Positions 1-41,996 of a stretch of 64,000 nt of DNA are shown here, piece after piece. The stretch comes from Primulina eburnea. Lineage: Eukaryota > Streptophyta > Magnoliopsida > Lamiales > Gesneriaceae. Positions within the stretch are counted from its first letter, which is position 1, and the number at the start of each line of letters is the position of its first letter. The notes below the pieces were generated by a model, which saw only the letters and a list, made by a program, of their open reading frames with translations, made no database searches and had not been told where the DNA came from. The stretch lies in contig NW_027331510.1 of assembly GCF_022965805.1 (NCBI RefSeq), positions 945,001 to 1,009,000 on the forward strand. The letters run 5' to 3'. Both the position numbers and the translations under genes were made by a program.

Positions 1-1
1 A

Positions 2-3000
2 AGGCTTCATGCCCATGTTAAAGAAAAGAGAGTCAAGATCTTGGCTATTTTGGAACCCATGATTGATTTGGATGTTCGATTTATGACTCGTCGTTTTGGT
101 TTTTCGCGAGTTATATCGAACTCCTCGGGTCATATCTGGGTTTTCTTTGCTGAGGACGTGATGGTTGAGTGTCTCCTTGATCACACTCAATTTCTTCACC
201 TCCAGGTTTCTGCTAGTTTTTAGCCGAACACTGTTTTTTGTTCCTTTGTTTATGCTAAATGTGATTACATTGAGCGCAGACAGCTCTGGACTTCTTTGAT
301 TCAGGTTAAGTCTGATCAGGGTCCTTGGCTTGTTGGTGGCGACTTTAATGTAGTTAGAAATTCGTCGGAGTGTTTGGGTTCTTCTGGTGGGAGGGTACTT
401 CCCATGGAAGAATTTAATCATTTTATTTTGGATTCTGGGTTAGTGGACGCTGGTTTTGAGGGGTCTTCGTTCACGTGGACGAACAAGACCATTTGGAAGC
501 GTCTTGATCGGGTTTTTGTGTCTGTTGATTGGGGTGACCATTTTCATTCTATTCGTGTGGAGCACCTCATTCGTACAGTCTCTGATCATTGTCCTCTTTT
601 TGTGTCAGTCCCGGTATTTGCTAGTGGGCCGAGTTCTTTTCGTTTTCAAAGCATGTGGCTCAGGCACCATGGTTTTTTGCAGACGGTGCGGCTTAATTGG
701 AATTTGCCGTGTCATTTGAACGGCATGCACCGTCTTTTTGTGAAATTGAAGCGCCTCAAGAGCCATCTGAAATGGTGGAATAAGAGTGTTTTTGGTGATC
801 TTTTTGACAAACTTGCTGAGGCGGAGCAGGCTGTCCGGGTCGCTGAGGCAGTTTGCGAGGCTGATCCTTCGGATTTGCATTGGACTAGTTTGTCCAATTG
901 CAATGCAGATCTTGCTCGGGTTACCGCCATGGAGGTGGATTTTTGGCGGCAAAAAGCCGCTTGTAGGTGGTTAGAGGATGGTGAGAGGAACACCAAACTC
1001 TTCCACAATATGGTGAAGAAAAAACGGGTGGCTAATAAAATTTTCCGTATTTGGGATAATGGCTCTTGCCTTACTTCCCCTGATCTTATTCAGCAGTCTG
1101 GGGCCGCCTTTTTTCAAAACCTGCTTACTGGGGATCCTTTTGTGCTTTCTTGCCCAGATTTTTTTGATTTTCCCTTGGTGATCTCTGATATGGAGAACGC
1201 CAATATTGCTGCCCCCCCCCTCTTTGGAGGAGGTGCGGGCGACTGTTTTCTCCATACATCGTGATAGTGTAGCGGGGCCTGATGGTTTCTCTTCGGCCTT
1301 CTTTCAGCATTGCTGGGAGATTGTCCATCAGGATGTTTTGGATGCGGTTCTTGATTTCTTTCGGGGTAGTCCCATGCCACAGGGGTTTACTGCCACTACG
1401 ATCACATTGATTCCCAAAGTCATGGGTGCTCAGGCTTGGTCGGACTTTCGTCCTATCAGCTTGTGTAATGTGACCAATAAGATAATTTCCAAACTTTTGT
1501 ATTCTCGGCTGAAGGTGGTGGCGGAGAGTCTTGTTTCGTGGAATCAGAGTGGATTTGTTCCAGGGAGGGTGATTTCAGATAATATCCTCCTTGCTCAAGA
1601 GTTTACTCATAGTCTTTCTCTCCCCACCCGTGGTGGCAATGTCATTTTGAAATTGGACATGGCCAAAGCCTATGATAGGGTCCAATGGTCTTTTCTGTTG
1701 GATGTTTTGAGGCATTATGGCTTTTCAGAGCAGGTAGTATCGATGATATCTGCCTGCATTTCTCATTGCCAATTTTCAGTTAATATCAATGGTTCACTCA
1801 CCGGATTTTTTGGATCCACTAGGGGTCTCCGGCAGGGCGACCCTTTGTCCCCACTTCTTTTCATTCTGGGGGCTGAGTACCTTTCGCGTGGTCTTGATCG
1901 TCTTTATCGACATCATCCTGCGATTAGGTACCGATCTGGTTGTGATCTCCTTATTTCCCACCTGGCCTATGCTGATGATATCATTATATTTGCTAATGGT
2001 GGGACTCGTGAGATGAACAGTCTTATGGAATTTTTGAATCACTATGAAAACTGCTCGGGGCAGTTGGTGAATGCCGTTAAGAGCGTTATTATTTTGCCTC
2101 CGAGGTGTTCTGGTCGTACTCGTTCCCGTCTCCTTCGTATCACTGGGTTTGGGGAGGGTCATTTTCCTATCAAATACCTCGGAGTTCCTTTGTTTCGTGG
2201 GAATAGAGTTTGCTCTCTTTTTGATCCCCTTGTGCAGATGGTGCGTAAGAAATTGGAGGGTTGGGAGCTTAAAACTCTTTCCCTGGGGAGCCGTATGACC
2301 CTCCTTAGGAGTGTTCTTCTTTCGGTTCCCATTTATATGTTCCAGGTAGTCCAACCACCTCTGGCAGTTATAGAGAGGCTTGAGAATGTTTTCAATGGCT
2401 TCCTGTGGGGATCCAGACCCTTGGATAAGAAATGGCATTGGGCGAGGTGGTCTCGTGCATGTATTCCTGTATCTGAAGGGGGTCTTGGATTTCGCAGGCT
2501 CAAAGATATTGTGGAAAGCTTCCCCATTAAATTATGGTTTCGTTTTCGTCAAGGTTCATCCCTTTGGGCCAAATTCATGATGAGAAAATACTGCCAGTTG
2601 GTGCATCCAGCTTATGTTTCATCTACTGGGTTCGTTTCTCCCACTTGGCGTCGTTTGCTTAAGATTAGGCCTCGTGCTGAATCTGGCATTCGATGGAGAC
2701 TTGGTATGGGAGATGTTAATTTTTGGGATGACATCTGGTGTGGGGATGTTACCTTGTCTAGTCAGGTTCTGGTTAGGGGGGATCGTGGTGTCTGTGTTTC
2801 TCACTTTATTTCAGATGGGGCTTGGGATTTTGACCTCCTCTGCTCAGTTGTCCCTCCCTCTGTTGCTGAGAATATCACTCTGATCCCTATTGCTTTGGGG
2901 GAACCCGATTTGGCTATTTGGGTACATAGTTCTGACGGTGTTTTTTCGCTGAAATCTGCTTGGGAGCTTGTCCGCTTGAGAGACCAAGTTTCTGATATCT

Positions 3001-4045
3001 TCACTCCTTGCTGGGGCAGTTGGCTGAGGCCTACTATGTCTTTCTTCCTCTGGAGGTTTTGGCATCAATGGCTTCCAGTTGATGATGTGCTTCAGCGTCG
3101 TGGCTTCGAGCTGGCGTCTAAATGTCAGTGCTGTGAGATGCCTGAGACATTCCCGCACATTTCATTGATAGCCCTCTTGCCAGGTCTGTATGGCATTACT
3201 TTGGGGCTGTTTTTCATGTCCGTATTCCCCTTACCAGTGATTTCAGACTCTTCCTCAGTGCTTGGAAGAGGCATACGGGGTGGACTCCTAGGGGCCACGT
3301 GAAGGAGTTTTTGCCTTTCATCATTTTATGGTTTCTCTGGACAGCTAGGAATGATGCGAAACACCGTCATTTGCACATTTCTGGGGAGACTGTTAAGTCT
3401 CAGATTTTGTCGTATTTGCGTCTCGCTCATGCTGCATCTACTGTTAAGCCCATGCATTGGCGGGGTGTTTTGCAGGCTGCGAGGACGCTGGGGATTTTTG
3501 TTGAGTTGCGTAGGGTTCATAGGATGGCGATTGTTCGTTGGTTGCGGCCGCCGTTCGAGTGTTTTAAATTGAATGTTGATGGGAGTTCTAGAGGTAGTCC
3601 TGGGGCTTCTACTGTTGGTGGTGTTGTTCGTGACTCCTCTGGGCATGTGGTGGTTTCTTTCAGCGAGTTCATTGGAGTTGGGACCAATGTTCGGTCAGAA
3701 TTATGGGCTATTTGGAGGGGTCTTCTCATTTCTTCTGATCTTCATCTCTTCCCTCTTTGGATTGAGACTGACTCTTGGATTTCCATTCTTTTACTTCGTT
3801 CTCGTCGGTGCTGCTGGGACCTTGAACATCTTGTTACACGGATTCTTTTGTTGATGAGGGGGCGATCAGTTCATTTATCGCATATTTACCGGGAAGGGAA
3901 TTCGGTGGCGGATGCCTTGGCGGCGAGGGCTCCTACTCTTAGGCAGTATACCTTAGAGTTAGGTCCTTCCCTACCTCCAGACATATCCATCCTTGCTAGA
4001 TCTGATCGTTCTGGGCTTCCATACCTCAGAAACAGATCTTCTTAG
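2..4045 (+). pseudogene. LINE ORF2 remnant (endonuclease-RT-RNase H), unit 1
   Basis: Encodes the L1 ORF2 polyprotein that nicks target DNA and copies the element RNA in place. Visible in order: APE endonuclease (LEPM near the start, GGDFN, TWTN, SDH), reverse transcriptase (LDMAKAYD, GLRQGDP, YADD near 1970), zf-RVT cysteines near 3120, and an RVT_3-type RNase H (NVDGSSRG near 3570). Three lesions are visible against unit 4. A nonsense TAG stands at 221-223 where unit 4 has TTG. A one-base expansion of a C run shifts the frame near 1210-1221. A one-base loss shifts it again near 3160, in the zf-RVT region. The stop at 4043-4045 is at the normal family position. The protein cannot be made intact. 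Confidence 0.92.
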
Positions 4046-4835
4046 CCATTTGCAGCCCCTTCTTCTTTTTTGGATCTCTTTCTTTATGATCTCTGGCTCA
4101 ATATCTATTTCTATCTATATATATATATATGTATAATTTTCTTGCAGGTTAGTGTTCTTGGAGGTTGTTTTTCACTTCCATATGGTCTGAGCAAGTGGGT
4201 CCAGACACTTGCACATGATGTGTGTATTATTGTGGGTTCCGAGTGGGTTTCTGCCCTATTTCTGATGGTGCTTTCCTTTGGCACATTCATGGTTCCTGGC
4301 GGTCGTTTACTACTGGTTCTCCTTGGCCGTCGTATCAGTTTTTGTAGAGATGTTTGCTGGATATCATGGTGGATTCATGGGGTGTTTTCTACAGGATCCT
4401 ATGGTTTTTATGCCATGTTCGTCAGACTCCTACTTCATGGGATCGAGGTCTCTGTTCTTTTGATTCAGATGCTGGATATCTTGTGCTCTGGCGGGATTGC
4501 GATCTATATCTTGCTCAGTGATCGCCATTGTATAGTGACTTCCTGGCCAGAATTTCTTTTGACTAGTGGGTTTGGTACAGTTGCCAGCTACCAGATTATA
4601 TTTACATTGCCAGATTGGACTCTCCAGGATGATAGCTCTGGGATGAACGCTTTTGCATGGACTCTGCGATCATCTCGCTGTTATCATTTTGTCTTCTTCA
4701 GCATGTGGCTCATAGCGCTTCTCGTGTTTTATTAGTTGTGGTCGCTTATTTGGTAGTCTTCTAGGGATCGTTTTGCTTTTGTAATTCCTTCCCTAGGTTG
4801 CTTTGTTTTTATGTATCTACTGCTTTAGCCTTTTT

Positions 4836-4971
4836 GAGGAGGTTTTGGTTTTCTCCACCTCCTCTTTTAGGTTTTTTATTCTGTATTCTGTTTTTTGTTA
4901 CTGTTTATTTTGTGGATATGTACAGGTAGGGGTCTGCCTAACCCCCCCGCATCCGGCGGTGTTTTCCGGGG
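4836..4971 (+). other. LINE 3' UTR conserved hairpins, unit 1
   Basis: Arm GAGGAGGT (4836-4843) pairs with ACCTCCTC (4857-4864). About 60 nt on comes the block shared by all units, starting TACAGGTAGGGG. It contains a possible stem GGTAGG/CCTAACC (4925-4943, one bulged A) and a stem CCGC/GCGG with a 5-nt loop (4947-4959) just before the poly(A). Probably the recognition structure for the element's own reverse transcriptase. Confidence 0.7.
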
Positions 4972-4983
4972 AAAAAAAAAAAA

Positions 4984-5200
4984 CCCTAAACCCTAAACCC
5001 TAAACCCGAAGCCCTAAACCCGAAACCCTAAACCCTAAACCCGAAACCCTAAACCCTAAACCCTAAACCCGAAACCCTAAACCCGAAACCCTAAACCCTA
5101 ACCCGAAACCCGAAACCCTAAACCCTAAACCCGAAACCCTAAACCCTAAACTCGAAACCCTAAACCCGAAACCCTAAACCCTAAACCCTAAACCCTAAAC
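4984..5200 (+). repeat. Telomeric repeat tract (CCCTAAA with CCCGAAA variants), between units 1 and 2
   Basis: About 30 heptamers of CCCTAAA directly follow the unit 1 poly(A). Roughly nine are CCCGAAA or close variants (CCCGAAG, CTCGAAA) scattered through the tract, and some units lack an A. The next LINE starts at 5201 with CATTTGCCCC. This is the longest telomeric tract in the window. Confidence 0.97.
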
Positions 5201-5277
5201 CATTTGCCCCTATATTTTTTTCTCTCTTTTTTGAATAGTGTCCAAAAAAGCCTATTTTCGCCTGAAAAATCGCCACC

Positions 5278-7765
5278 ATGTCGGCGCCGGTTTCCGGCCG
5301 ACCACCTGTACGATTAGGTTCGCCTCGTCGAGACGAGGCTACTGTCCAAATTTCATGCCAAAAGGAGGTCACCTGCCCGGCCAAATCGACGTTCAAATGT
5401 CCAGAAATTGTGCAGATTCCGGCGACCGGAATCGCGACCACCTCCGATCATCGTCCGGCGACGATTTGTATACCATTAGAATCGTCTTCTCAAGGCGCAC
5501 CTACAGTCCAAATTTCAGAGCAATCGGAGTTCGTTTGCTTGCCCAAATTGACCGGAAAAGTCGCGAAAATACTGTTCACCGAATCGCCATCAACGATTTC
5601 TTCGATTCCGGCCGACTCCGACGTTGTTTCTCCGATCGGGACCTCGATCTGGAATGCCCAGGAAGAGGCGCTTCCATTGGTTCAGCCCCCGTCACCAGAA
5701 GTAGCCGGAGGGAGCCGGAATTTCAGATCTACCGATCGGGTCCATCAAACCCTAGCGGCGCCGGAGTTTTTCTTCAATTCCGGTGGCGTCGCTGCTCCAA
5801 AATCAAATTCCTTTTTACAGTGTGATCCTCCGGTCATGGGTAACATTTCTACACCTTTAATTTCATTTAATTCGTTGCCGATCAAAAACGCCCAAATTCA
5901 AGTTAGTGAACCGATTTTGCGTGATTCTTCCGTCGATTTTGGCCGTTTTCCGACCGGTTCTTTTTGCTTCACTACCGGTTCTGACCTCCCACCACCTTCG
6001 CCGGCCCACGCCTCAACTCCGACCGGTCGCCGCCGAGTCAACTCGGCCGGTTTCACCGGTTCAAACCGGTCTTCCACCCGCTCCGGCTCCTCGTGCGAAT
6101 ACTCCTGGCATTTCAGGTACTTTTCTTACTCCTACCGTCTCTTTTAAGGATGCTTTAACACCTCCCTCGCCCCGTTCTATTAAAAAAAGTTTTGATGATG
6201 TTCGAAATGGTATGTCTGAGATACCAGCTCCGACTCTCGTCAACGGGAAACCTGGTATTCGGTTTCCCGACTCAGTTATTTCATCCTTGGCCGCTCCCTA
6301 CAAGTTTGCCCTTGTTGGTAAAATCAATGGGAATCGGTCGATTGTTCCTAACTCCTCTATTTCTGCTTCCTTGGCGACTACCGGCTTCTCGAGACCTTAT
6401 GATTTAAAGTTCCTCCCTCGTGGCTTCCTTGTCATTATTCTGTCGTGTGAGGAAGATTATGCGCGACTTTGGTCGCGTGGATCCATGCATTTTGGTCCTC
6501 TCAGTGTTCGATTTTCCAAATGGACCCCTGAATTCCAATTCCAAGCTGAATCTCCCATTGCTCCAGTCTGGGTCCGCTTCCCTGAACTCCCCCTTCGCCT
6601 TTACGATAAGACTAGTCTATTTGCGTTAGCCAAAATTCTAGGGAACCCAGTTAAAATTGATGATTTCACTGCTGATGTCTCCCGAGGTGCCTTTGCTCGG
6701 GTTTGCGTTGAACTTAATGTTTTGGATACTCCAATCAAGCAGATCTGGGCGGGTTGGGGTGAACATACTCTAGACATAGATGTTGTTTATGAAAAGTTCC
6801 CAGACTACTGTACTGATTGTAAGATGTTGGGGCATTCTACTTCTGTTTGCTATTCCCATGGCAAGAATCCTAGGCCGGTTCGTCCCACCCGACCTTCTGC
6901 GTCGGCCTTTCAGCCTCCCAAAGATTCCCGGGGTCCCCAACCCGAAGTCCATCCTTCCTCCTCTTTCCCCTCTGTGGTTCCCTATCAGAAGGATGGCAGT
7001 CCGTCTTCCCCCTTGATCCCTCCTTTGGGTCCTCAGGCTCCGGCAGTCCCTGCTGTTAGACGACCCCGTTGTCGTAACAGAAGAACTGCCCAGCATGTCC
7101 CTAACATCCCATCCCCTGCTTCTGGGAATGCCTTCGAGGTTCTTAGGAATTTAGAAGAAGCTGATTCCACTTGTTTTCCTCCTCCTGTTCAGTCCCCTCA
7201 GGCGGTCGCTGAACACCTTTCTGATCTGACCCCAGTTGCCCCTTCGCCCCCCCGTGTCATCCCTCTCCCTGTTGCCAATGACTTTTCGCTATCTAGCCCT
7301 GCCCAGTCATCCCTCTCGATTAAATGTGCCCCTCTAGCTCAGCCATGGGCCAAGGAGGTGGAGGAGGAGGATGACGTTCTTTTTACTGACTGTGCTGAGG
7401 ACCTTGGTTCTCCGCAGGTCGGTGCTCCCTTGGGCGTGAATCACACTTCTCTTTGTGTGGAAAACCATAGCAGTCATTCCATTCCTTCTAGTCCCTCTAC
7501 TCAGGATGATGTTTCCTCCAAACTCCTTGAGAACCTAATTTCCCAGCAAGGATTAGTTTCCTCCGAGATCAGTCTTTTGGTTTCTGAGTCAGACCGGGAT
7601 CTTTCCCTCCACTCTCCTCGCGGCTCTGTTTCTTGTGATGGCAGGGATTCTGTCGAACATGATAGGGACTCTGACATGCCTGACACCACCAAAAAACGTC
7701 AGTTTCAACAGCTATCTGATTATGCAGTTAAGAAACGGCATCCTTCTCGTGGCCGTTCCCCATGA
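5278..7765 (+). pseudogene. LINE ORF1 (DUF4283 / CCHC zinc knuckle), unit 2, one frameshift
   Basis: ORF1 protein of plant L1 elements, expected to bind the element RNA. The start at 5278 has a strong context (GCCACCATG). The first ~260 codons are a low-complexity Pro/Ser-rich region with FRST-type motifs also seen in the other units. The frame is lost at about 6050-6100 and resumes in the frame open from 5906. The second part holds VSFKDALTPPSPR, a DUF4283 core (about 6180-6780), and a zinc knuckle CX2CX4HX4C (YCTDCKMLGH near 6806-6855). A long variable tail ends in a basic stretch. The stop TGA (7763-7765) overlaps the ORF2 ATG. With the single frameshift repaired by nature or sequencing error it would be about 829 codons; as read it is broken. 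Confidence 0.9.
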
Positions 7766-10700
7766 ATTGCCTCATTTGGAATATCAGGGGTCTTGGGAAC
7801 CCGAGCTCCCAACAAAGGCTCCATGCCTATGTTAAGAAGCATCGTGTCAAAGTCCTAGCCATCTTGGAACCTATGATCCTGCTTGATCCGCGTTTCATGT
7901 CTCGTAGGTTGGGATTTCGTAGTGTCATCTCTAATATTTCTGGTCACATCTGGGTCTTCTCTTCTGAGGATGTTCAGGTTGAGTGTGTCTTTGACCATGC
8001 TCAGCTTTTAAACGTCCGCGTCTCTTCTTCTTTTCTCCCTACTTCTGTCCTTTGCACTTTTGTTTATGCCAGGTGTGATTACATTGAAAGGCGCGATCTT
8101 TGGGCTACGTTGCTTCAGATCAAACCTGACATGGGTCCTTGGCTTGTTGGGGGGGACTTCAATATCGTTCGGGATGCCAGTGAGTGCCTTGGTACTTCTG
8201 GGGGGCGTCGTCTTCCCATGGACGAATTTAATGAGTTCATTATTGAGTCTGGTTTAGTTGACGCTGGGTTTGAAGGGTCGTCATTCACTTGGACGAACCA
8301 AACCATCTGGAAGCGTCTGGATAGAGTCTTTGTTTCGAATGACTGGTGTGATTTTTTTCATTCTATCCGAGTTCAGCATCTTCCTCGTACTGTTTCCGAT
8401 CATTCCCCCCTCTTTATCTCCACTCCCATCAGTGCTCGTGGGCCGTGTTCTTTTCGGTTCCAGAGCATGTGGACGCGGCATCACAATTTCCTTCAGACGG
8501 TGCGCTTGAACTGGCATAATCCTTGTCAGCTTACGGGTATGACTCGGCTCTTTGTCAAGCTCAAGCGCCTCAAGAGTCACCTCAAGTGGTGGAATCAGGA
8601 TGTCTTTGGCAACATTTTTGATAAAATTTCTGCTGCTGAGTCTGCTGTGAAAATAGCGGAAGTTGCTTGTGAGACTGATCCTTCTGATTTACACTGGACT
8701 CGCTTGTCCAAGTGTAATGAAGATCTTGCCAAGGTCACTGCCATGGAGGCGGATTTTTGGAAACAAAAATCTGCCTGCAAATGGTTAGCGGATGGTGAGA
8801 AAAACACCAAACTCTTCCACAACATGGTCAAGAAGAGGCGTGTGGTTAATAAGATTTTCCGTATTTGGGAGGATGGGGTGTGTCTGACCTCCCCTGAACT
8901 CATCCAAAGCTCTGGTGCCGCCTTCTTTCAGAACCTGCTTAATGGGGAACCTTCTGTTCTGAGTTGTCCTGATTTTTCTGATTTCATCCCTCTGATCTCG
9001 GACTCAGAGAACCATCATCTTACTTCAGACCCTTCCTTGGAAGAGGTTCGTGCTGTCGTCTTTTCTATCCACATGGATAGTGTTGCGGGACCCGATGGGT
9101 TCTCCTCGGCTTTTTTCCAGCACTGTTGGGACATTATTCAGCATGATGTTCTCGATGCGGTGTTAGACTTCTTTCATGGGTCTCTGATGCCCCAGGGCTT
9201 CACTGCCACCACCATCACTCTGATTCCGAAAGTTGAGGGAGCTCATTCCTGGACTGACTTTCGTCCCATTAGCCTCTGTAATGTCACGAACAAGATCATC
9301 TCGAAGTTGCTATATTCGCGTATGAGCAAGGTTGTCGAGAAGATCATCTCTCTGAATCAGAGTGGCTTCGTTCCTGGCAGACTTATTTCTGATAACATCC
9401 TTCTTGCCCAGGAACTCGTTCATAGTTTCAACCTTCCCTCTCGCGGGGGTAATGTCATCATCAAGTTGGATATGGCTAAGGCTTACGACAGGGTCCAATG
9501 GCCTTTCCTCCTCCAGATTCTCAATAAGCTTGGCTTTTCGGATACAGTTGTCGGCATGGTATCGGCTTGCATTTCCCATTGCAAGTTCTCTTTGAATATC
9601 AATGGCAATTCTGCCGGCTTCTTCAGTTCCTCCAGGGGTCTTCGTCAAGGAGACCCCATATCTCCGCTCCTCTTCATTCTGGGAGCAGAATATCTCTCTC
9701 GGGGGCTGAACCGTATTTCTCTGCATTTTCCGAATTCTCGTTTTCGATCGGGATGCGACACTCTGGTTTCCCATTTAGCCTATGCTGATGATTTCATTCT
9801 TTTTGCTAATGGTGGGACCCGTGGCATTCGGCGCATTATGGATTTTCTTGGGCATTATGCCAACTGTTCGGGACAGATGGTCAATGTCTCCAAGAGTGCT
9901 CTCTTTCTTCCTCCTAGCTGCCCTGCGAGTTCTCGGCTTCGGCTTCTTCGTTTGACAGGCTTTAGAGAGGGGCAACTTCCCACCATATACCTTGGAATCC
10001 CTCTTTTCCGAGGGAATCGCAAGTGTTCTCTTTTTGAGCCTCTTCTTAAATCTGTTAGGATGAAATTAGAAGGTTGGGACTCCCGTACCTTGTCTCCTGG
10101 GAGTCGTATGACTCTTATTCGCAGTGTGCTCCTTTCCCTCCCCATCTATCTCTTCCAGGTGATCCAGCCTCCTTTGGCGGTCATCGAGCGTCTTGAGCTG
10201 ATTTTTAATGGTTTCTTATGGGGGTCTCGCCCCCTTGAGAAGAAATGGCATTGGGCCAGATGGTCTCGTGCTTGTCTCCCTGTCCTTGAAGGGGGCCTCG
10301 GGTTCCACAAGTTGAAGGACTTGGTCGATGGCTTTCCGATCAAGTTATGGTTCAGATTCAGGCATGGCATTTCCCTCTGGGCGAAATTCCTCCTGAATAA
10401 GTATTGTAGGACTGAGCATCCGTCTTATGTCCCCATTCGGGGGCTCATTTCTCCTACATGGCGCAGGATGATCCATATTCGTTCTAGGGCTGAGTCTGGC
10501 ATCCGTTGGCGGGTCGGCACTGGGGAATTATCCTTCTGGGATGATACCTGGTTCGGCGATGCACCCCTATCCTCTCTGCGTCAGGTCTGTGGTGCCCGTG
10601 GCGTTCGTATCTCTTACTTCTTTTTGGATGATGGATGGGATTTTGATAGGCTCTCTCTTGTTGTTGGTCCAGTTCTTGCCGAGGATATTACTATGATCCC

Positions 10701-11853: not shown

Positions 11854-11875
11854 TTCTAGACTTTGTTCCAGGTTT

Positions 11876-11930
11876 AAAAAAAAAAAAAAAAAAAAAATCG
11901 AAAAAAAAAAAAACGAAAAAAAAAAAAAAA
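11876..11930 (+). repeat. Internal A-rich tract just after ORF2, unit 2
   Basis: Three long A runs separated by TCG and CG, starting 23 nt after the ORF2 stop and followed by TTTATTATTATTA. No other unit has it; they have a TA-rich stretch and a TTGCAGGT motif in this part of the 3' UTR. It may mark an earlier 3' end of this subfamily. Confidence 0.85.
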
Positions 11931-12682: not shown

Positions 12683-12707
12683 CTTTATTAAAAAAAAAAA
12701 AAAAAAA

Positions 12708-12779: not shown

Positions 12780-12876
12780 GACTCATTTGCCCCCAAAAAA
12801 TTTTCTCTGAAAAACACACAGTAAAAGGTGCGAAAAAACACACTACAATTTGACACTATTCACGTCCAAACCCGCC

Positions 12877-31741: not shown

Positions 31742-31845
31742 GAGAGGTCTTGGTATAGTCCCCCTCTCTTTAGGCCTTACCTTGTATTTATTTTGTGTTT
31801 ATATATACAGGTAGGGGTCCGCCTAACCCCCCCGTTTCCGGCGGT
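31742..31845 (+). other. LINE 3' UTR conserved hairpins, unit 5
   Basis: GAGAGG (31742-31747) pairs with CCTCTC (31763-31768). The terminal block starts at 31806. In the last hairpin the arms read CCGT/GCGG, so one C-G pair became a U-G wobble and the stem is kept. Confidence 0.65.
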
Positions 31846-31871
31846 GTTTAAAAAAAAAAAAAAAAAAAAAA

Positions 31872-31896
31872 CCTAAACCCTAAACCCTAAACCCTA
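31872..31896 (+). repeat. Telomeric repeat tract between units 5 and 6
   Basis: Starts CCTAAA (two C) after the poly(A), then three CCCTAAA units, ending CCCTAG. The LINE sequence of unit 6 follows with no spacer. Confidence 0.93.
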
Positions 31897-32463
31897 GGCG
31901 AGATCGATGAGTATTTCGGTTGCTCTCCACAGATTACATAGGACGGCGATTGTTTGCTGGCTGCGACCGCCGTCCGGGTGCTTCAAGCTTAATGTGGATG
32001 GGAGCTCGCGTGGTATATCTAGGGACTATGCTGCTGGTGGCGTTGTTCGGGATGATTCCGGGAGGGTTGTGCTCTTATTCAGCGAGTTCATTGGAGCTGG
32101 GTCTTCTCTCCGGACTGAGCTTTGTGCGGTTGGAGGGATCTTCTCCTTTGTTCCGATCATTCTTTTTTCCCTCTTTGGATCGAGCTTGATTCTCTGACTT
32201 CTATTTAGCTCATTCGTTTCCGTCGATGTTGCTGGGGTCTTGATCACATTGCATCTAGGATTCTGGTCCTTTTGAGGGGGCGGTCTGTTCATATTTCGCA
32301 TATATTTCGGGAGGGTAATTCGGTGGCGGATGCGTTGGCGGCGAGGGCCCATGACCTTAGGCACTTTACCTTAGAGTTAGGTCCTTCCTTACCCAGTCAC
32401 ATCTCCATCCTAACCCGCTCTGATCGTTCAGGGCTGCCATACCTTCGATACAGATTTTCTTAG
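31897..32463 (+). pseudogene. LINE ORF2 C-terminal RNase H fragment, unit 6
   Basis: Covers the last ~185 codons of ORF2: the basic TAIVCWLRPP segment, RNase H start NVDGSSRG near 32000, and the C-terminal REGNSVADALAARA motif near 32308. The frame breaks near 32130, where one base is missing in the sequence corresponding to AVWRGL. The same break, with the same downstream reading, is present in unit 7. The last part resumes in the frame 32272-32463 and ends at the normal stop. Non-functional. Confidence 0.9.
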
Positions 32464-33260
32464 CCATTTGCAGCCCCTCCTTTCTTTTGGATCTCTTTTT
32501 TTTATCTCATGTTATATATGTATGTATGTATTTTTTATTGCAGGTCTTTAGTTCTTGGAGGTTGTTCTCTACTCTTATTTGTTCTGTGCAAGTGGGTCCA
32601 GACACTTGCACCCTCCTTGTTTTGTTCATTTGGGTTTGGGTGGGTCCCAGCACTTCCTCCGTTTGTGCTTTTCTTTGGACTACCCTGTTACCTGGAAGGC
32701 ATTCACTGCAGGCTTCTCCTTGCTCGCCGATTTCTTACCTTATGTTTTGCCGACTGCTATGGTGCATCTGGATGTTTTATCTCAGTGATTTCTCTGGCCT
32801 GGAGCTCCATTTATAGTTACAGTCGCGTGATTCATGCTTGCATTTCTGACGTGATGAGCTCCGATAGTTTTCTCTCTCCTCTTGGGATTTGAAGCTTTTA
32901 TGACTTGAGCTGCATTGCGGTCCTCCTTCCGTGCTTCGACCGTTTTTGCACAGTCACTTCCCAGCTGCTTGCTATTTTTCCTGCGCAATCCTGTACAGCA
33001 GTCAGATCTTGGACTATGATGTATTTTTCAGTTTGGCCTTACATTGACAGACGGCTCAGAGATGGGTATCATCGGTGGTCTTTTGCACATATTTCTGAGC
33101 TGGATTTTTATTGGTTAGATCGGTTTGGATTTATTTTCATGTATCTAGCGCTGCTCTTAGGCGTTCATTTGTATTATTCGCTTTCCCTAGGGATTAGTTT
33201 ATGGCTTATGTATTTGCCACCCTAGGTTTTTGTTTGTATGTTTAGTATGACTAGCCTTTA

Positions 33261-33365
33261 GAGAGGTCTTGGTCTTGTCATCCTCTCTTTAGGTTTTATC
33301 TTGCATTTCTATTATTGATGGTATATACAGGTAGGGGTCTGCCTAACCCCCTCGCTTCCGGCGGT
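33261..33365 (+). other. LINE 3' UTR conserved hairpins, unit 6
   Basis: GAGAGG (33261-33266) pairs with CCTCTC (33282-33287). The terminal block starts at 33326. The final stem is CGC/GCG extended by a T-G pair. Confidence 0.62.
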
Positions 33366-33386
33366 GTTTTATTTTTAAAATAAAAA

Positions 33387-33439
33387 CCCTAAACCCTAAA
33401 ACCCTCAAACCTTAACCCCTGAACCCTAAACCCTAAACC
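33387..33439 (+). repeat. Degenerate telomeric tract between units 6 and 7
   Basis: About seven imperfect heptamers (CCCTAAAA, CCCTCAAA, CCTTAACC, CCCTGAA) ending in two perfect CCCTAAA. More eroded than the tracts to the left. Confidence 0.9.
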
Positions 33440-33520
33440 AAGTTTGCAACCGGAAAAATTCTCTCCAAAAATATCCCAAAATCACCCCCATTTTGTTACT
33501 ATTCACGTGTTCACGCCGCC

Positions 33521-35861
33521 ATGTCATCGCCGCCGGATACTGACCGGCGAAGTATACCACCGGAACCGCCACCTCAAGCCGACCAATATACTCAAAAATC
33601 AGATGCATCGGAGTCCGGCAACACCTCTTATTTTCCGATCGAAAATCCACCATTTCCGTTCAACTCTTCGTCGGTGCCGTACACAGCTCCAACCGGCGCC
33701 GACCACCCACCCTTACACTCGCCTCAACGAGACCGTTTGTTTGGTACAAGCCTCACCTTCACCAACCCCGTAAATCCACCGCAATCGACACTCAAAGTCA
33801 CGCCATCACTGTTCACGAGCTCGTCGGAGTTTATATCTTCGATTCCGGCCGATTCTTGCATCATCAATTCAATCCAAGCCCCGATCTATGATGCCCAGGC
33901 ACAGACAATCCCGATGACACCAGTTTCAACCCAAACGCCATTCACCGTCGACGGCAATTTCAATTCTAATATTTCAAGGCCGACCGTGAGTTTAACGTCC
34001 CATTCATGTCCAAATTCCGGCGCCGTTCCGGCATTATTCTTCAATTCCTCTGGCCCAGCCCTTCGTCCAGTCCTGGGTAGAGTATTACCATGTTCAATTT
34101 CTGGTTTCTGACCACCGGTCGGAAACCCCCAAATTCCAAGGTATAATCGATTTTCTCCTTCTTCTTTGGTTCAATCGAATCCTCCATTGCCCGAGTCTGC
34201 TCGAATTGGTCCCGGTTCTGGGCTCCCCTCACCGTCGCCGATCCATGGTGGTGCTCCGGCAGGTGACTCGCGAGTCAACTCGGCCGAGTCAAACCGCCGA
34301 GTGGAACGAGTTGACTCGACAGTCAACCCTTGTGCTGAAACGGTCAAACCAGGTACGCGTGTTCCTATTCCGCTTACCGTGTCATTTCGTGATATCCTGA
34401 CTCCACCGTCCCCTCGGACGGCCAAAAAAAGCTTTGATGAGTTGCATAATTCTATGTATGATATGCATGTGCCAACTCTTCGGAATGGAAAACCGGGTAA
34501 CCTATTCCCGGAAGAGGTCATTTCTTCCCTGGCAGAACCTTTCAAATTTGCTCTGGTTGGAAAAATTTCAGGTAATCGATCTCTAGTTCCAAATTCTGGT
34601 ATTTCTTCTGCTTTTGCTGAATTGGGACTAGTCAGATCTTTTGACTTAAAGTTCATGCCTCGGGGTTTTCTTGTTCTCACACTTGCTTGTGAGAAGACTA
34701 TTCGTTCTTTTGAACTAAGGGGATTATGCAGGTGGGACCTCTGTCGATCCGCTTCTCTAAGTGGACGCCAGAGTTTAATCTTCAGGAGGAGTCACCCATT
34801 GCCTCTGTTTGGATCCGCTTCTCGGGTCTTCCCCTTCATTTGTTTTCCAAGCAAAGTCTCTTTGCTTTGGCAAAAATTGTGGGGAAATCGGTGAGATGAT
34901 CATACTGCAGATTCTTCTCGGGGCGCTTTTGCTCGAGTCTGTGTTGAAATAAATGTGTTGGAACCGCCAGTCAAAGAAATTTGGGTGGGTTGGGGTGATC
35001 ATGCTCAAGAAATTGAAGTCATTTATGAGCGAATCCCTGGATACTGCACGGATTTCAAGATGCTGGGTCATTCGACCAGTGTTTGTTATTCCCATGGAAA
35101 AAATCCAAAACCCGTTTGTCCTAAGCCTGCTGACCGTGCTCCTGGTCACATCTACAGAGCCTGCACCACCAGGGGGTGTTACTCCTGGTTTTCATTTGGG
35201 GACCCAGCCTCAGCTTCAGAAAATTGGCACGGGTCCCAGGCGTAGAGGGAGAAGGAGACCAGTCAGGCAGGTTCTTCCAAGAAAGAATCCTCTTGAATTG
35301 AATCCTTTTGAGGTGCTCTCGCATGGGCAGGATGCGGAGCCTGATCTTGTTGGATTAGATTGTGTTGGTACGGATTCTCCATGTGGTAATCTGGAGGATG
35401 CAGGTGTTGGTCATTCTGGTGGGGTCCAATTTGGTTCTGTTCTTCATGAGGGTGTGGACCCCAGTGTTGGAGACGTTGAGGAAGGGTTGCCTACTGCTGA
35501 ATGTGTGGATGCTATTGGGGTTCCGTCTTCCAGTGTAATGACGGTTCTTGATACGCTGGTGCATTGTACTTTGAATCACATTAGTCATTCCATTCCCTCT
35601 TTTCCTCCGTCTCCCGATTCCTCTATGGTTGAGGAATTGGTTACTCGACAGGGACCTTCTGTTAGTGAGATGGTTTTCCGGCTGGAGTCTGCTGGTGATA
35701 CTGATCAGGAATATGATCGCCACTCTGAGTCGGGTGATGGTTGTAGGCCTGACAGTCGTGTTCTAGACTACGATATGAGTGATATCAAGAAGAGGAAAGA
35801 GAATGCTTTTCATAGGTCACGTAAAAAGCGACAGGGCGATTCTTCTACCCATTCTCCATGA
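33521..35861 (+). pseudogene. LINE ORF1 (DUF4283, broken zinc knuckle), unit 7
   Basis: Starts MSSPPDTDRR like unit 4. A TGA at 34109-34111 replaces an Arg codon (unit 4 has CGG). The frame then stays open through VSFRDILTPPSPR and the DUF4283 core to about 34690, where a small deletion shifts it. Further small deletions lie near 34890 and 35150. In the zinc knuckle the second Cys is changed to Phe (YCTDFKMLGH, near 35043-35060), which removes a metal ligand. The C-terminal half is open to 35861, where the stop still overlaps the ORF2 ATG (ATGA at 35858). Confidence 0.88.
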
Positions 35862-38800
35862 ATCTTCTCATATGAAATTTCAGGGGGCTCCAAAGCTCGG
35901 AGTCTCAACAAAGGCTTCATGCCTATGTCAAAGAGAAGAGAGTTCAGATTTTGGCTGTTTTGGAGCCCATGATTGATCTGGATCAGAGATACATGACTCG
36001 CCGTTTGGGGTTTTCTGGAGTCATCTCTAATCTCTCCGGTCATATCTGGGTATTTTTTGATGCTGATGTGAGGGCGGAGTGTGTTTTTGATCATGCTCAG
36101 TTCCTCCACATCAGAGTCTCTGCCTCTTTCTTGCCGACAGAGATATTTTGTTCTTTTGTCTATGCTAGATGTGATTATGTTCAACGTAGGAATCTTTGGG
36201 CTTCTTTGCTTTTGGTTAAGCCTGTTTTGGGTCCCTGGCTGGTTGGTGACGACTTTAATGTCGCCAGGGATGCGTCTGAGTGCTTGGGCTCTCGTGGTGG
36301 TAGGTTGCTACCTATGGAGGAGTTCAACACTTTTATTCTTGACTCTGGCCTGATCGATGCTGGTTTTGAGGGGTCTTCGTTCACTTGGACGAATAAGACC
36401 ATTTGGAAGCGGTTGGACAGGGTCTTGGTTTTTGTTGATTGGGGAGATCATTTCAGCTCGATTCGGGTTGAACATCTCGCTCGTACTGTCTCGGATCACT
36501 GTCCTCTTTTGGTCACCGCTCCTGTTTTTGCCCGTGGACCGAGCTCGTTTCGCTTCCAGCGTATGTGGGTTAGGCACCATGGTTTTTTGCAGACTGTGAG
36601 AATTAATTGGAATCTGCCTTGCAGTCTGAGCGGCATGCCTAGGCTTTTTGCCAAGATGAAGCGTCTCAAGCATCACCTCCGGTGGTGGAATCGGGATGTT
36701 TTTGGCAACATCTTTGATAGACTCACTTAGGCTGAGAGGGCTGTTCGTCAGCCGAGACTGTCTGTAAGGCCGACCCTTCTGACGCGAATTGGACTTCGCT
36801 GTCCGATTGCAATGAGGATCTGGCCCCGCTCACTGCCATGGAGGCAGATTTTTGGAAACATAAAGCGGCTTGCCATTGGCTTGAGGATGGTGAGCGGAAC
36901 ACCAGACTCTTCCATAACATTGTGAGGAAAAAGCGCGTTGCGAATAAGTTTTTCCGCATTTGGGAGAATGGGGTCTGCCTGACGTCTCAGAATTTGATTC
37001 AGCAGTCGGGAGCCTTGTTTTTCCAGGATCTTCTTACCGGGGAGCCCTCTGCGCTCGATTGCCCTGATTTTTCGAGTTTTCCCTCGGTTATCTCTGCTAT
37101 GGAGAATGAAGGTATTGTTGTGATTCCCTCTTTGGAGGAGGTCCGCGCGACCGTCTTCTCCATTCACCCTGATAGCGTTGCTGGCCCTGATGGCTTCTCT
37201 ACGGCGTTCTTTCAGCATTGCTGGGAGATTGTCCATCAGGATGTTTTTGGTGTTGTTCTTGATTTTTTCTATGGTTCTCCTATGCCTCAGGGTTTTACCG
37301 CCAGCACGATCACTCTGATTCCCAAAGTCGAGGGTGCACGTGCTTGGTCGGACTTCCGTCCGATCAGTTTGTGCAATGTCACGAACAAGATCATCTCGAA
37401 GCTTTTGTACTCTCGGATGAGGGATGTGGTGGAGAGACTTGTTTCTCCGAATCAGAGTGGCTTACGCTGATATTGTCATTATTTTTGCCAGTGGTGGGTC
37501 TCGTGGTATGCAATGTCTTGTCGATTTTCTGCATCACTACGAGAACTGTTCGGGGCAGCGTGAGAATGCTGCCAAGAGTTCTTTGATTTTGCCTCCCAGG
37601 TGCTCTGGGCGCCTCCGCTCCCGGCTTTTGCGCATCACCGGGTTCGCCGAGGGTCATCTGCCCCTCAAGTACCTCGGAGTTCCCCTTTATCGGGGTAATC
37701 ACACATGCTCCCTTTTTGAGCCCCTCCTACAGTCTGTTCGTAGGAAGTTAGAGGGTTGGGAGATTCGGACCCTCTCCTCGGGTAGCCGCATGACCCTGAT
37801 ACGTAGCGTGCTCCTCTCCATGCCGATTTATCTTTTTCAGGTGGTTCAGCCACCCCTGGCTGTCATGGAGAAGCTTGAGCGGGCCTTCAATGCCTTCCTC
37901 TGGGGGTCGAGACCCTTGGAAAAGAAGTGGCAATGGGCCCGGTGGTCCCGGGCTTGCCTCCCCGTGCTTGAGGGGGGCCTTGGATTCCGCAGATTGAAAG
38001 ATCTCGTGGAAGGTTTTCTATAAAATTATGGTTCAGATTTAGGCAGGGCTCCTCTATATGGGCGAGATTCCTTTTCCGGAAGTATTGCCGGCTGGATGCT
38101 CCTGCCTGTGTCCCCGCCCGTGGTTCTATATCCCCATTTGGCGTCGTCTCCTTAGGATCCGCCCTTGTGCAGAGCCTGGCATTCGCTGGCGTGTTGTTCT
38201 TGGAGATGTATCCTTTTGGGATGAGACTTGGCTCGGGGACGCTCCCTTGTCCTCCCGTTGTGTGGTCCGCGGGGGCCGTGATGTTCGGATATTTCAGTTT
38301 TTGTCTGAGGGGTCATGGGATTTTGATCGCCTTTGTGCGGTAGTTTCTCTTTCGGTTGCCGAGGAGATCGTTTTGATTCCTGTTCTTTCGGGAGAGCCCG
38401 ATCTAGCACGTTGGATCCATAGATCCGATGGTGCTTTTTCAGCGAGATCTGCTTGGGAGCTGATCCGTCAGCGTGCTCCGTCTTCTGATATCTTCCGCCC
38501 GTGTTGGGGGAGCTGGTTGAGGCCTACCATGTCGTTCTTCCTCTGGAGATTCTGGCTTCAGTGGCTCCCAGTTGATGAGGTACTCCAGCGTCGGGGTTTT
38601 GCGTTAGCTTCGAGATGTCAGTGTTGTGATATGTACGAGACATTCACACACATATTTTTTCGCATCCTAGTAGCTCGGTCTGTTTGGCGTTTCTTTGGTG
38701 CCGTTTTTGGGTCCGTATTCCCGATTGAGGATTTCAGTTTGTTCTTCAGTGCCTGGAAAAGAGACTTGGTCTGGTCCTAGGGGGCCATGTGCCGGAGTTT

Positions 38801-39533
38801 CTCCCCTGCATCGTTCTGTGGTTCTTCTGGACTCACGGAACGATGCTAAGCACCATCATCTTCCCATCTCTAGGGAGACGGTGAAGTACCAGATTTTGTC
38901 TTACCTGCGTCTCGCCCACTCTGCACGTACTGTCAAGCCCCGACATTGGCTGGGTGTGTTTCATGTGGCGAGATCGATGGGTATTTCGGTTGCTCTCCAC
39001 AAATTACATAGGACGGCGATTGTTTGCTGGCTGCGACCGCCGTCCGGGTGCTTCAAGCTTAATGTGGATGGGAGCTCGCGTGGTATATCTAGGGACTCTG
39101 CTGCTGGTGGCGTTGTTCGGGATGATTCCGGGAGGGTTGTGCTCTCATTCAGCGAGTTCATTGGAGCTGGTTCTTCTCTCCGGACTGAGCTTTGTGCGGT
39201 TGGAGGGATCTTTTCCTTTGTTCCGATCATTCTTTTTTCCCTCTTTGGATTGAGCTTGATTCTCTGACTTCTATTCAGCTCATTTGTTCCCGTCGATGTT
39301 GATGGGGTCTTGATCACATTTGTTCCAGGATTCTAGTCCTTTTGAGGGGGCGGTCTGTTCATATTTCGCATATATTCCGGGAGGGTAATTCGGTGGCGGA
39401 TGCGTTGGCGGCGAGGGCCCATGACCTTAGGCACTTTACCTTAGAGTTAGGTCCTTCCCTCCCTAGGCACATTTCCATACTTGCTCGCTCGGATTCTTCC
39501 GGGCTTCCCTACCTGAGATATAGATCTTCTTAG
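35858..39533 (+). pseudogene. LINE ORF2 remnant, unit 7, RT core deleted
   Basis: ATG at 35858, but codon 6 is TGA (Trp in other units). The endonuclease frame is otherwise open to 36730, ending at a TAG, with a frameshift near 36750. At about 37464 the sequence jumps from NQSG to AYAD: about 410 bp present in unit 3 are absent, including RT motifs A (LDMAKAYD) and B (GLRQGDP). Further shifts lie near 38015, 38100 and 38770-38830. The RNase H start NVDGSSRG is near 39060, followed by the same one-base loss as in unit 6 (near 39205). The C-terminus resumes at 39342 and stops at 39533. Long dead. Confidence 0.9.
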
Positions 39534-40526
39534 CTGTTTGCAGCCCTTCCCTTCACTTGGATCCATTTCTTCTGTCTTTCTATATGTATATGTATATTTT
39601 TTCTTTGCAGGTACTGTTATTTAGGGGGTTTCTCTTTTTCCCCGTTTTGCTAGTCTGGTGTGAGTGGGCTCAGACACTCGCACACTACATATTTGATCTC
39701 CTCGGGATTGGGTGGGCTCTTGCACTCACCCTATTGGTGCTTTTCTTTGGTCCTCTCATATTCCCTGGAGGGCGTCTTCAGCTCCATTCATGTTGGGCTT
39801 TACACACTACAAAAAAAAAGTGTTTCTAGAAGCAGTTTTTGAGGAGCACTTCTTAAACCGCTCGTGCAAACTGAACCACAAAATCACTTTTACTTAAACC
39901 GTTTCTATTTTCTTACTTTTAGGAGTGGTCGTATAACCGCTTTAGTAGCGCAAATTTTAGTACCGATTTGTATCAACCGCTGTTATAAATTGTTCCTATT
40001 GATTTAACTATTAGAACCATTCTGGAAACTACTCTAATTGATTATTTTTAACAGTGGTTTCACAAAACCGATTTTGTGGACCGCCCTTATAGCTCTGTTT
40101 TTTAGGTTTGATTTGAAAATTGCACCTATTAAATATATTTATGAACCGTTTTTCTGCATTGCACTTATTAATATCCTCCTCAGGATTTGATTAGCGACGG
40201 TTTTCGAAACAACCGTCGCTAATATTTGCGACGTTTTAATCATAACTGTCGCCTTGTTCAAAAGGCGACGGTCTTAATGACACCGGTCGCTTTATTTAGC
40301 GACCTTTTTATCAAACCGTCGCTGAATTTAGCGACGGGCAAAGCCAAACAGTCACATGTATTATCTTAGCGACGGTTTACATAAACATGCCGCTAATATT
40401 AGCGACGGTTTTTTGTATATCGTCGCTAACGTTAGCGACGACGAAAGGTAAACCGTCGCATAATTTAAATTTTGAAAAACCCGCCGTACATAGCGACGGT
40501 CAGCGATAAACCGTCGCCAAATATTC

Positions 40527-40534
40527 TATAAATA
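40527..40534 (+). promoter_or_regulatory. TATA-like box inside the CACTA element
   Basis: TATAAATA followed by a C/T-rich, ACTTCACAAC-containing stretch that looks like a plant transcription start region. It may be what is left of the transposase promoter of the autonomous parent. No reading frame follows. Confidence 0.4.
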
Positions 40535-40570
40535 CCTCTACTTCCGATCCCTTTTCTCACACTACTTCAC

Positions 40571-40790
40571 AACACTTCAAATTTTTCTCTCTTACGCAAT
40601 TTTACCACTTCACGATAATAAAATTTTTTTTACACGATTTTATTTTGAATTTAATGTAAATTTTTTTCCCCTTTTCTCACAACACTTCAAATTTTTCTTT
40701 CTTACACAATTTTACCACTTCACGATAATAAAAATTTTTACACGATTTTAATTTGGATTTAATGTAAATTTTTTTCTTTAATTTTTGGTA
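40571..40790 (+). repeat. 110-bp tandem duplication inside the CACTA element
   Basis: Two copies (40571-40680 and from 40681) beginning AACACTTCAAATTTTTC and containing TTTTACCACTTCACGATAAT, differing at a handful of positions. The second copy fades near 40785. Confidence 0.85.
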
Positions 40791-41837
40791 CATTTTTAAG
40801 TGTTAGTTTAAAATCAAGAATTATATTCATAGTAACATTGTAAGTGTTTTTAGATTTATTAAATTTTTTTCACCGAAAATATTAGCGACGGAAATTATGA
40901 AATAACTGTCGCTAAAATAGCGACGGAATGTATGAAAAGGTTGTCGCTAATTTTAGCGACGGTTTGCTTGCTCTGTCGCTAAATATGTAGACGCCGGTAT
41001 ATTAATCTGTCGCTAAATTGCGACGGTTGCGCATAAATCCGTCGCAAATCTTGAAGGCGACGGTTGCGTATAAACCGTCGCAAATTGTAGCTACAATACC
41101 AAAAAAAATACCGTAACGGGGTAATGGGTACGAGTATTATCAAACCGCACCTAAAATAAACAATAGAAGCGATTCTTCAACTTGTACCACCGGTTGAAAA
41201 AACCGCTTCTATAAGATATAGGGTCATCAATAAGAGGAGCGATTTTGAAACCGGTGGTACAAGTGCTGGAGCGGTTAAAAACCGATCTTAAAATTGAAAA
41301 AAACCGCTCTTGTATGAGTATTTTTTTGTAGTGACAGGATCTATATTTTTGCGGTGTGTGTTTGTTCCCCGAGATGCAACATCCTCGCAGCTTGTTGCTT
41401 CAGGGTTCTATTCACATTAGGGCTTTTGACTTGGGCTGGATCGCGGTCTCCATTTTGTGTTTTGACTCCATTTGCACAGTGGCTTTCCAGCCAGACAGTA
41501 TTTTGTTCATGGGTTCTTGTACAGTTGTCAGAATCCTGATTTTGACAGATTGGACTTACCAAGGTGATGGCTACTCTAGTCAGCTATCCTATCAGATTAG
41601 TTTCGTTTTGACAGATTGGATTTACCAGGGTGATGGCTATGGGATGAGAGTTTCTGCTTGGCTTCTGTTTTCATCTCGCAGTCATCATTTTGTCTTCCTC
41701 AGCATGTGGGGTCATTAGCGCTGCTTTTATTTGTTTAGTTTTTGGCGTTCATTAGTAGTATTCTAGGGTTAGATTAGCTTTTGTATTTACTTCCCTAGAT
41801 TGCTTTGTTTTTACGTTTCTACTGCTTTAGCCTTTCT

Positions 41838-41963
41838 GAGGAGGTTTTGGCTTTATCCACCTCCTCTTTTAGTTTTTTATTCTGTATTATGTTACTGTTT
41901 TTTTGTGGATATATACAGGTAGGGGTCTGCCTAAACACCCCCCCCCCCTCGCATCCGGCAGTG
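41838..41963 (+). other. LINE 3' UTR conserved hairpins, unit 7
   Basis: GAGGAGGT (41838-41845) pairs with ACCTCCTC (41859-41866). The terminal block starts at 41914 and reads CCTAAACACCC where other units have CCTAACCCCC. The last stem (CGC/GCA) is damaged, in line with the age of this copy. Confidence 0.6.
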
Positions 41964-41981
41964 TTTTCCGGAAAAAAAAAA

Positions 41982-41996
41982 CCCTAAACCCTAAAC
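41982..41996 (+). repeat. Terminal telomeric repeat of the array (two heptamers)
   Basis: CCCTAAA twice plus C, directly after the unit 7 poly(A). It is the right boundary of the array and abuts LTR-retrotransposon DNA with no transition. Confidence 0.85.

What the first reader, a model, noticed from the sequence alone, without database searches (positions are those of the whole stretch)
1..41996. Seven-copy tandem LINE array punctuated by telomeric repeats in a plant
Every one of seven L1-type LINEs ends in poly(A) joined directly to CCCTAAA repeats, all in one orientation, and each telomeric tract is followed by the next LINE. At a left chromosome end the G-rich strand is the 3' end. If it primes reverse transcription on the LINE poly(A), the + strand must read LINE, poly(A), CCCTAAA, exactly as seen. 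Telomeric repeat addition onto the new end would then give the tract on which the next copy lands. Comparable LINE/telomere associations are known from Chlorella (Zepp), silkworm (TRAS/SART) and Drosophila (HeT-A); I know of no well-described flowering-plant case. The alternative is repeated insertion into internal telomeric repeat.
Basis: partly seen in the sequence, partly recalled or inferred. Interest (0 to 1): 0.92.

Follow-up and report, generated by a model that had tools for sequence, protein, structure and literature searches.

The report
Telomere-specific LINE arrays in Primulina
In the flowering plant Primulina eburnea, most assembled chromosome ends carry copies of an L1-type jumping gene, often stacked and separated by short telomere repeats, an arrangement known from silkworm but one I did not find described for any flowering plant.

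Summary
The window (scaffold C980 of an 812-Mb assembly matching Primulina eburnea, Gesneriaceae) carries seven L1 LINEs in one orientation, and all seven poly(A) tails run into CCCTAAA repeats. Copies are about 68-93% alike, so this is not one segmental amplification.

The LINE 3' motif has 207 exact matches genome-wide. Of the 100 listed, 77 lie within 250 kb of scaffold ends; at left ends 38 of 41 read +, at right ends 36 of 36 read -. The other 23 form two internal blocks. Poly(A)-CCCTAAA junctions number 268; the opposite junction, 0. Copies occur at 26 of 36 ends of the 18 large scaffolds. Endonuclease and RT are under purifying selection. A TERT domain is present, yet the longest perfect telomeric run assembled is 238 bp.

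The junction register (TTT^AGGG) and conserved endonuclease fit TRAS1-like nicking of telomeric repeats better than priming from the free chromosome end; neither is proven. This window's array lies head-to-head with an opposite array inside a separate 4.2-Mb scaffold, so it is not a clean left end as assembled.

The parts
1..4983 (+). LINE copy 1 (5' part outside the window), 3' end and poly(A)
   Evidence: ORF2 with 1 stop and 2 frame breaks
4984..5199 (+). telomeric tract 1 (CCCTAAA with CCCGAAA variants)
5202..12707 (+). LINE copy 2, full length, open ORF2
7732..11853 (+). ORF2 of copy 2: APE-type endonuclease, RT, zf-RVT, RNase H
   Evidence: Pfam PF03372, PF00078, PF13966, PF13456; RT region matches LINE-1 ORF2 chains of solved structures
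12708..12779 (+). telomeric tract 2 (CCCTAGA variants)
12780..20402 (+). LINE copy 3, full length, one frame break in ORF2
12811..15018 (+). ORF1 of copy 3: DUF4283 plus a zinc knuckle below the curated cut-off
20403..20432 (+). telomeric tract 3
20433..27918 (+). LINE copy 4, full length, 1 stop and 3 frame breaks in ORF2
27919..28038 (+). telomeric tract 4
28039..31871 (+). LINE copy 5, 5'-truncated
31872..31895 (+). telomeric tract 5
31897..33386 (+). LINE copy 6, 5'-truncated
33387..33439 (+). telomeric tract 6
33440..41981 (+). LINE copy 7, most decayed ORF2 of the window (4 stops, 6 frame breaks), interrupted by a CACTA-type element
39805..41333 (.). CACTA-type DNA transposon inside copy 7, 3-bp ACA duplication
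   Evidence: terminal CACTACAAAA and its complement; class name recalled
41982..41995 (+). telomeric tract 7 (two units), boundary to ordinary chromosome

Best explanation
A plant L1 family has become telomere-specific. Its ORF2 protein probably nicks the G-rich strand of telomeric repeats at TTT^AGGG. The exposed GGGTTT-3' end pairs with the element's poly(A) tail and primes reverse transcription, so on the C-rich strand a copy reads LINE-poly(A)-CCCTAAA with its 5' end toward the chromosome tip. Telomeric repeats, original or added by telomerase, lie distal to the new copy and are the target for the next one, so copies pile up at the tip and the oldest lie nearest the centromere. Shown: end localisation and orientation in the listed places, junction register, diverged copies, a decay gradient in one array, purifying selection. 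Inferred: that the nick is made by the element's endonuclease rather than the chromosome end itself serving as primer, and that the process is ongoing.
For: Location and strand: 77 of 100 listed 3' motifs (207 in all) within 250 kb of scaffold ends, 74 of 77 in the expected strand. Junctions: 268 A10(CCCTAAA)2, opposite orientation 0; 57 of 69 motifs on the listed part of C1-C8 have the strict junction within 130 bp; in held DNA 24 of 24 distinct 3' ends run into telomeric repeats (21 A|CCCTAAA, 2 A|CCTAAA, 1 after a degenerate stretch). Independence: copies about 68-93% alike; among the DNA held, copies 1, 3 and 7 are closest to copies at other scaffold ends. Tip-to-base decay of ORF2 in the C980 + array: Spearman 0.83 on 12 copies. 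Selection: ORF2 omega median 0.13; endonuclease 0.10 (33 of 45 pairs), RT 0.09 (41 of 45); the E of (L/F)EP, GDFN and SDH kept in 10 of 10 copies. Stubs: two LINE 3' ends of about 35 bp and one poly(A)-only insertion inside telomeric tracts. TRAS1 endonuclease is reported to nick TT^AGG (PMC7265360, passages).
Against: Target duplications cannot be read inside repeats, so free-end priming stays open. Twelve of 69 motifs lack the strict junction. Three end-located listed copies are in the unexpected strand, and C9's left tip also starts with a - LINE. Two internal blocks (C5 27.9-28.1 Mb, C7 37.3-37.45 Mb) and the head-to-head C980 array are not at assembled ends. No copy was seen at 10 of 36 ends. 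Only the first 100 places of each list were shown. Copy 5's closest held relative lies in the same C980 array, and copies 1 and 4 are 93% alike, so some local duplication is possible. Copy 2 is intact in the middle of the gradient. No non-telomeric L1 family was recovered as a control: two distant queries returned only array copies, with 25 of 3278 and 32 of 3532 candidates scored.
Confidence: 0.7

Rival explanations
1. Terminal extension: the free G-rich 3' end of the chromosome primes reverse transcription without a nick (as in Drosophila HeT-A or endonuclease-independent L1), and telomerase then caps the cDNA end.
For: Gives the same strand and register; the decay gradient fits accretion at the tip; variant repeats differ between the two sides of a copy, CCCGAAA before copy 2 and CCCTAGA after it, as if each tract formed separately; a TERT domain is present.
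Against: The endonuclease is about as strongly conserved as the RT. The copy at C17's right tip looks 5'-inverted, with sense and inverted parts meeting at neighbouring element positions; C8's left tip is a less clear case. Such inversions (recalled) need a second target-strand end; but no upstream flank is seen at either tip. Full-length 5' junctions mostly leave the repeat in one register, 16 of 19 after AAACC (four in-tract rows dropped by hand), as a second-strand cut could give, although CC could belong to the element or to a telomerase start.
Confidence: 0.25
2. Insertion into old interstitial telomeric repeats (chromosome-fusion relics), not at chromosome ends.
For: The window's own array is internal to C980 and head-to-head with a - array; further internal blocks on C5 and C7.
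Against: 26 of 36 ends of C1-C18 carry copies; on C1-C12, 77 of 100 listed motifs lie in the terminal 1.1%.
Confidence: 0.04
3. Segmental or tandem duplication of one LINE-plus-telomere unit.
For: Many spacings of 7.5-7.8 kb between neighbouring listed 3' ends, although that is also the length of one full copy.
Against: Window copies are only about 68-93% alike; copy 1 is 95-96% identical to copies on C4, C14 and C10 and up to 97% to one on C16, against 93% to copy 4; truncation points differ.
Confidence: 0.03
4. Assembly artefact: misplaced or chimeric contigs create the arrays.
For: Head-to-head switches at the tips of C2 and C3 and inside C980; two internal blocks.
Against: The poly(A)-CCCTAAA junction occurs 268 times in one orientation only, in copies of different subfamilies on many scaffolds. 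Artefact may explain the internal blocks, not the junctions.
Confidence: 0.03

Closest known systems
TRAS elements of silkworm (Bombyx mori)
   Same: Endonuclease-bearing LINE at telomeric repeats; the inferred nick between T and A of the G-rich strand matches the TRAS1 nick; the host keeps a (weakened) TERT (PMC7265360, passages).
   Different: TRAS is an R1 family (PMC10088271, passages) in TTAGG repeats; this is a plant L1 with RNase H and a DUF4283 ORF1 in TTTAGGG repeats.
SART elements of silkworm
   Same: LINE in telomeric repeats, poly(A) at the junction (PMC7265360, passages).
   Different: SART inserts in the opposite orientation to TRAS (PMC7265360, PMC10088271, passages); here the opposite junction was not found.
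Zepp of Chlorella (green alga)
   Same: Listed as the Viridiplantae case of a telomere-associated LINE (PMC10088271, passages); its L1-like affiliation is recalled.
   Different: Green alga, not a land plant; no sequence comparison made here.
HeT-A/TART/TAHRE of Drosophila
   Same: LINE arrays at chromosome ends; the shared strand relation is recalled.
   Different: Drosophila lacks telomerase (PMC7265360, PMC7658794, passages); here a TERT domain is present and telomeric repeats separate the copies.
FoTeR (Fusarium) and MoTeR (Magnaporthe)
   Same: 5' end toward the chromosome tip; FoTeR not seen at non-telomeric loci (PMC12857005, passages).
   Different: FoTeR has RT and a restriction-enzyme-like endonuclease domain (PMC12857005, passages); here an APE-type endonuclease.

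Membership tests
L1 LINE | APE-type endonuclease, RT related to LINE-1 ORF2, poly(A) tail | tested here: met
   Pfam PF03372 and PF00078; phmmer to LINE-1 ORF2 chains E 2e-48 to 2e-47, R2 far weaker; poly(A)
Plant L1 LINE | RNase H domain at the ORF2 C-terminus and DUF4283/zinc-knuckle ORF1 (recalled as plant-L1 traits) | tested here: met
   PF13456 and PF14111; zinc knuckle below its cut-off
TRAS (R1 clade) telomeric LINE | R1-clade RT | tested here: inconclusive
   Evidence points away: LINE-1 ORF2 is the best solved relative and the named listed hits are plant proteins; no R1 or TRAS sequence was compared directly
TRAS-like mode of insertion | Nick between T and A of the G-rich telomeric strand, poly(A) joined to the C-rich repeat | tested here: inconclusive
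   Junction agrees in 23 of 24 3' ends; the nick itself is not testable here
HeT-A-type end extension without endonuclease | No need of an element endonuclease; host without telomerase | tested here: not met
   Endonuclease under purifying selection; a TERT RNA-binding domain is present and open; telomerase activity unknown
Telomere-specific retrotransposon (general) | Copies confined to telomeric repeats at chromosome ends | tested here: met
   77 of 100 listed motifs at ends; the 23 others lie in two internal blocks, 17 of 23 with the strict telomeric junction. Met for the listed part only; 107 of 207 motifs were not listed

The most novel reading that the evidence does not exclude
Chromosome ends of Primulina are built mainly from LINEs: telomerase supplies only short spacer tracts, no long canonical telomere exists, and retrotransposition carries much of end maintenance. 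The lineage could be an old angiosperm one, since the closest sampled relatives are ginger-family L1s that may also be telomeric.
Probability: 0.3. Interest if true: 0.96.

Novelty: new variant of a known kind. Interest (0 to 1): 0.88.

Why it matters
A 2020 review says that even unusual plant telomeres characterised so far are telomerase-made (PMC7658794, passages), and a 2023 paper's list of telomeric retrotransposons names a green alga but, in the passages I saw, no land plant (PMC10088271). A flowering plant whose chromosome ends are LINE/telomere mosaics, with a TERT gene present, would be a plant counterpart of the silkworm case. It would make the division of labour between telomerase and retrotransposons testable in a growable plant, and would show that L1, usually thought to insert widely (recalled), can become telomere-specific.

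Tried and rejected
Looked for a non-telomeric L1 family in the same genome as a control, with Coffea and Carya proteins: only array copies came back, because only the best 25 and 32 candidates were scored; control not obtained. RNA folding of five 3' ends: none folds better than its shuffles (z 0.40 to 1.94), so no structure is claimed. The constant 5' register was considered as proof of second-strand cleavage and rejected, since CC may be the element's own start or a telomerase start site. A segmental-amplification origin was tested and rejected for the array as a whole. The ORF1 search (19 hits, Primulina, Sesamum and a few distant or unnamed) did not bear on the mechanism. A variant of the 3' motif, meant to list places past the 100-row cut (C13-C18 and unplaced contigs), did not complete.
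Full report
WHAT WAS CHECKED IN THE WINDOW. CCCTAAA tracts of two or more units lie at 4984-5199, 12721-12770 (with a fused start at 12708), 20403-20430, 27919-28038, 31878-31891, 33387-33437 and 41982-41995, all on the + strand, each after a run of A. Self-comparison shows seven LINE copies, all +, about 68-93% alike. TTTAGGG occurs only as single units on the + strand. Copy 2 has one open ORF2 of 1373 codons with APE-type endonuclease, RT, zf-RVT and RNase H; its RT region matches LINE-1 ORF2 structures. ORF1 of copy 3 carries DUF4283. Six tracts are followed by another LINE; the seventh, two units long, is followed by non-LINE sequence that further right holds LRR-kinase and Copia pieces. 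The gap in copy 7 is a 1.5-kb CACTA-type element with a 3-bp duplication.

WHERE IT COMES FROM. Of the best 20 ORF2 relatives (61-74% identical), 19 are named Primulina or Henckelia (Gesneriaceae) and one is unnamed. The window is G000:C980:945001-1009000 of an 812-Mb assembly of 1224 contigs, and contig lengths of G000 equal those of Primulina eburnea protein records (for example 33437426, 38893887, 88483). A paper on this species speaks of 18 assembled chromosomes (PMC10778706, passages). C1-C18 sum to 735.5 Mb, 90.5% of the assembly.

GENOME-WIDE POSITION. The 22-base LINE 3' motif has 207 exact matches, its reversed-letter control 0. One hundred places were listed (C1 to part of C12). Of these 41 lie within 250 kb of a left end (38 +), 36 within 250 kb of a right end (36 -), and 23 in two internal blocks: C5 27.88-28.08 Mb (14, all -) and C7 37.28-37.45 Mb (6 +, 3 -). 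The terminal 250 kb are 1.1% of C1-C12. Of 24 ends of C1-C12, 18 have a listed match (the right end of C12 came after the cut). Counting all evidence for C1-C18, 26 of 36 ends carry at least one copy. None was seen at C4R, C5L, C5R, C7R and C11R (2-10 kb read and no listed motif within 250 kb), nor at C15R, C16L, C17L, C18L and C18R (only 2 kb read, no motif listing). Other contigs (C326, C399, C400, C401, C414, C683, C1133) also carry copies.

JUNCTIONS. A10(CCCTAAA)2 occurs 268 times (115 +, 153 -), reversed letters 0. Of the 100 listed, 37 are near left ends (35 +), 33 near right ends (33 -) and 30 in the C5/C7 blocks. The opposite junction A10(TTTAGGG)2 occurs 0 times. Of 69 listed motifs on C1-C8, 57 have the strict junction within 130 bp; 12 do not, and one of these (C2:1772) was read and has an imperfect telomeric tract after its poly(A). 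In held DNA 24 of 24 distinct 3' ends lead into telomeric repeats: 21 as A|CCCTAAA, 2 as A|CCTAAA, 1 after a degenerate stretch. This register is what a GGGTTT-3' primer gives. At full-length 5' ends the tract leaves the repeat after AAACC in 16 of 19, after AAACCC in 1 and after AAACCCT in 2 (four of 23 rows, inside tracts, were dropped by hand). Truncated copies vary: 3 of 7 after AAACC. Two LINE stubs of about 35 bp joined at CCTAACCCC, and one poly(A)-only insertion, sit inside telomeric tracts. C17's right tip looks like a 5'-inverted insertion; C8's left tip less clearly so.

AGE AND ACTIVITY. In the C980 + array, ORF2 damage per codon rises from the side taken as the tip to the base over 12 copies, four of which cover under 1000 codons (Spearman 0.83). 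The four tip-most copies have none, copy 7 has ten lesions; copy 2 is an exception, intact in the middle. Among 15 copies the median omega of ORF2 is 0.13; the closest pair (on C3 and C2) differ by dS 0.03. In ten copies omega is 0.10 for the endonuclease (33 of 45 pairs), 0.09 for RT (41 of 45) and 0.15 for RNase H (45 of 45). Of 25 ORF2 places scored, 21 had no stop.

TELOMERES. A run of 12 perfect units occurs at 83 overlapping places, which merge into 14 tracts; the longest is 238 bp (C14:33416498-33416735). All 14 lie at LINE-bearing ends or in contigs C400 and C1133, which carry copies. C7's left end starts with about 0.6 kb of imperfect telomeric repeat next to a LINE, and C12's right end closes with 2 kb of it, distal to a LINE. 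No long perfect telomere is assembled; assembly loss cannot be excluded, and long imperfect tracts were not searched for. A TERT RNA-binding domain is present once, without stops, at C14:17.63 Mb.

THE WINDOW'S OWN ARRAY. C980 has LINEs in - orientation at 880 and 895-899 kb, + from 910 to 987 kb, none at 850 kb (500 bases read) or in the window right of 987 kb. Stretches 905001-910000 and 940001-945000 read N. This looks like two chromosome ends joined tip to tip, by fusion or mis-assembly. The C5 block has non-LINE sequence on its distal side, again a fusion or mis-join.

RELATIVES. In a tree of copy 2 and 44 proteins (of 45 that I chose), the 20 Gesneriaceae rows form one group (100/100) and join the 7 Zingiberaceae rows (98/99) rather than the other Lamiales L1s sampled; the root is the midpoint. 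Gene numbers suggest neighbouring copies in ginger; its DNA could not be read here.

MECHANISM. The best account is TRAS-like nicking and target priming inside telomeric repeats near the tip, followed by the next insertion in distal repeat. Free-end priming remains a serious rival.

LITERATURE. In the listings and passages I saw from eight searches that bear on it there was no report of telomere-specific LINEs in a flowering plant; the library lacks most subscription papers and all preprints.

Noticed in passing
window 39805-41333: CACTA-type DNA transposon inserted in LINE copy 7 with a 3-bp ACA duplication.
   Followed up: partly
window 48122-53642 and 55073-63081: LRR receptor-kinase pieces and Copia gag/pol pieces next to the array; a 96% identical repeat pair at 56312-56804 and 59308-59795.
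   Followed up: no
L024 (reverse complement 900-1470) and L013 2400-2520: LINE stubs of about 35 bp and a poly(A)-only insertion inside telomeric tracts.
   Followed up: partly
L047 (C17 right tip), L014 1-2200 (C8 left tip): A copy that looks 5'-inverted (twin-primed) at C17; a less clear case at C8.
   Followed up: partly
3' ends, e.g. window 27857-27890: The conserved LINE 3' motif itself contains telomere-like CCTAACCCC, which could pair with the G-rich strand.
   Followed up: no
G000 C5 27.88-28.08 Mb, C7 37.28-37.45 Mb: Internal blocks of the same family; possible chromosome-fusion relics or scaffold mis-joins.
   Followed up: partly
protein hits P0051, P0053, P0054, P0058, P0062 (Zingiber, Curcuma): Ginger-family L1s group with the Gesneriaceae ones, and some have neighbouring gene numbers; may be telomeric too.
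   Followed up: no
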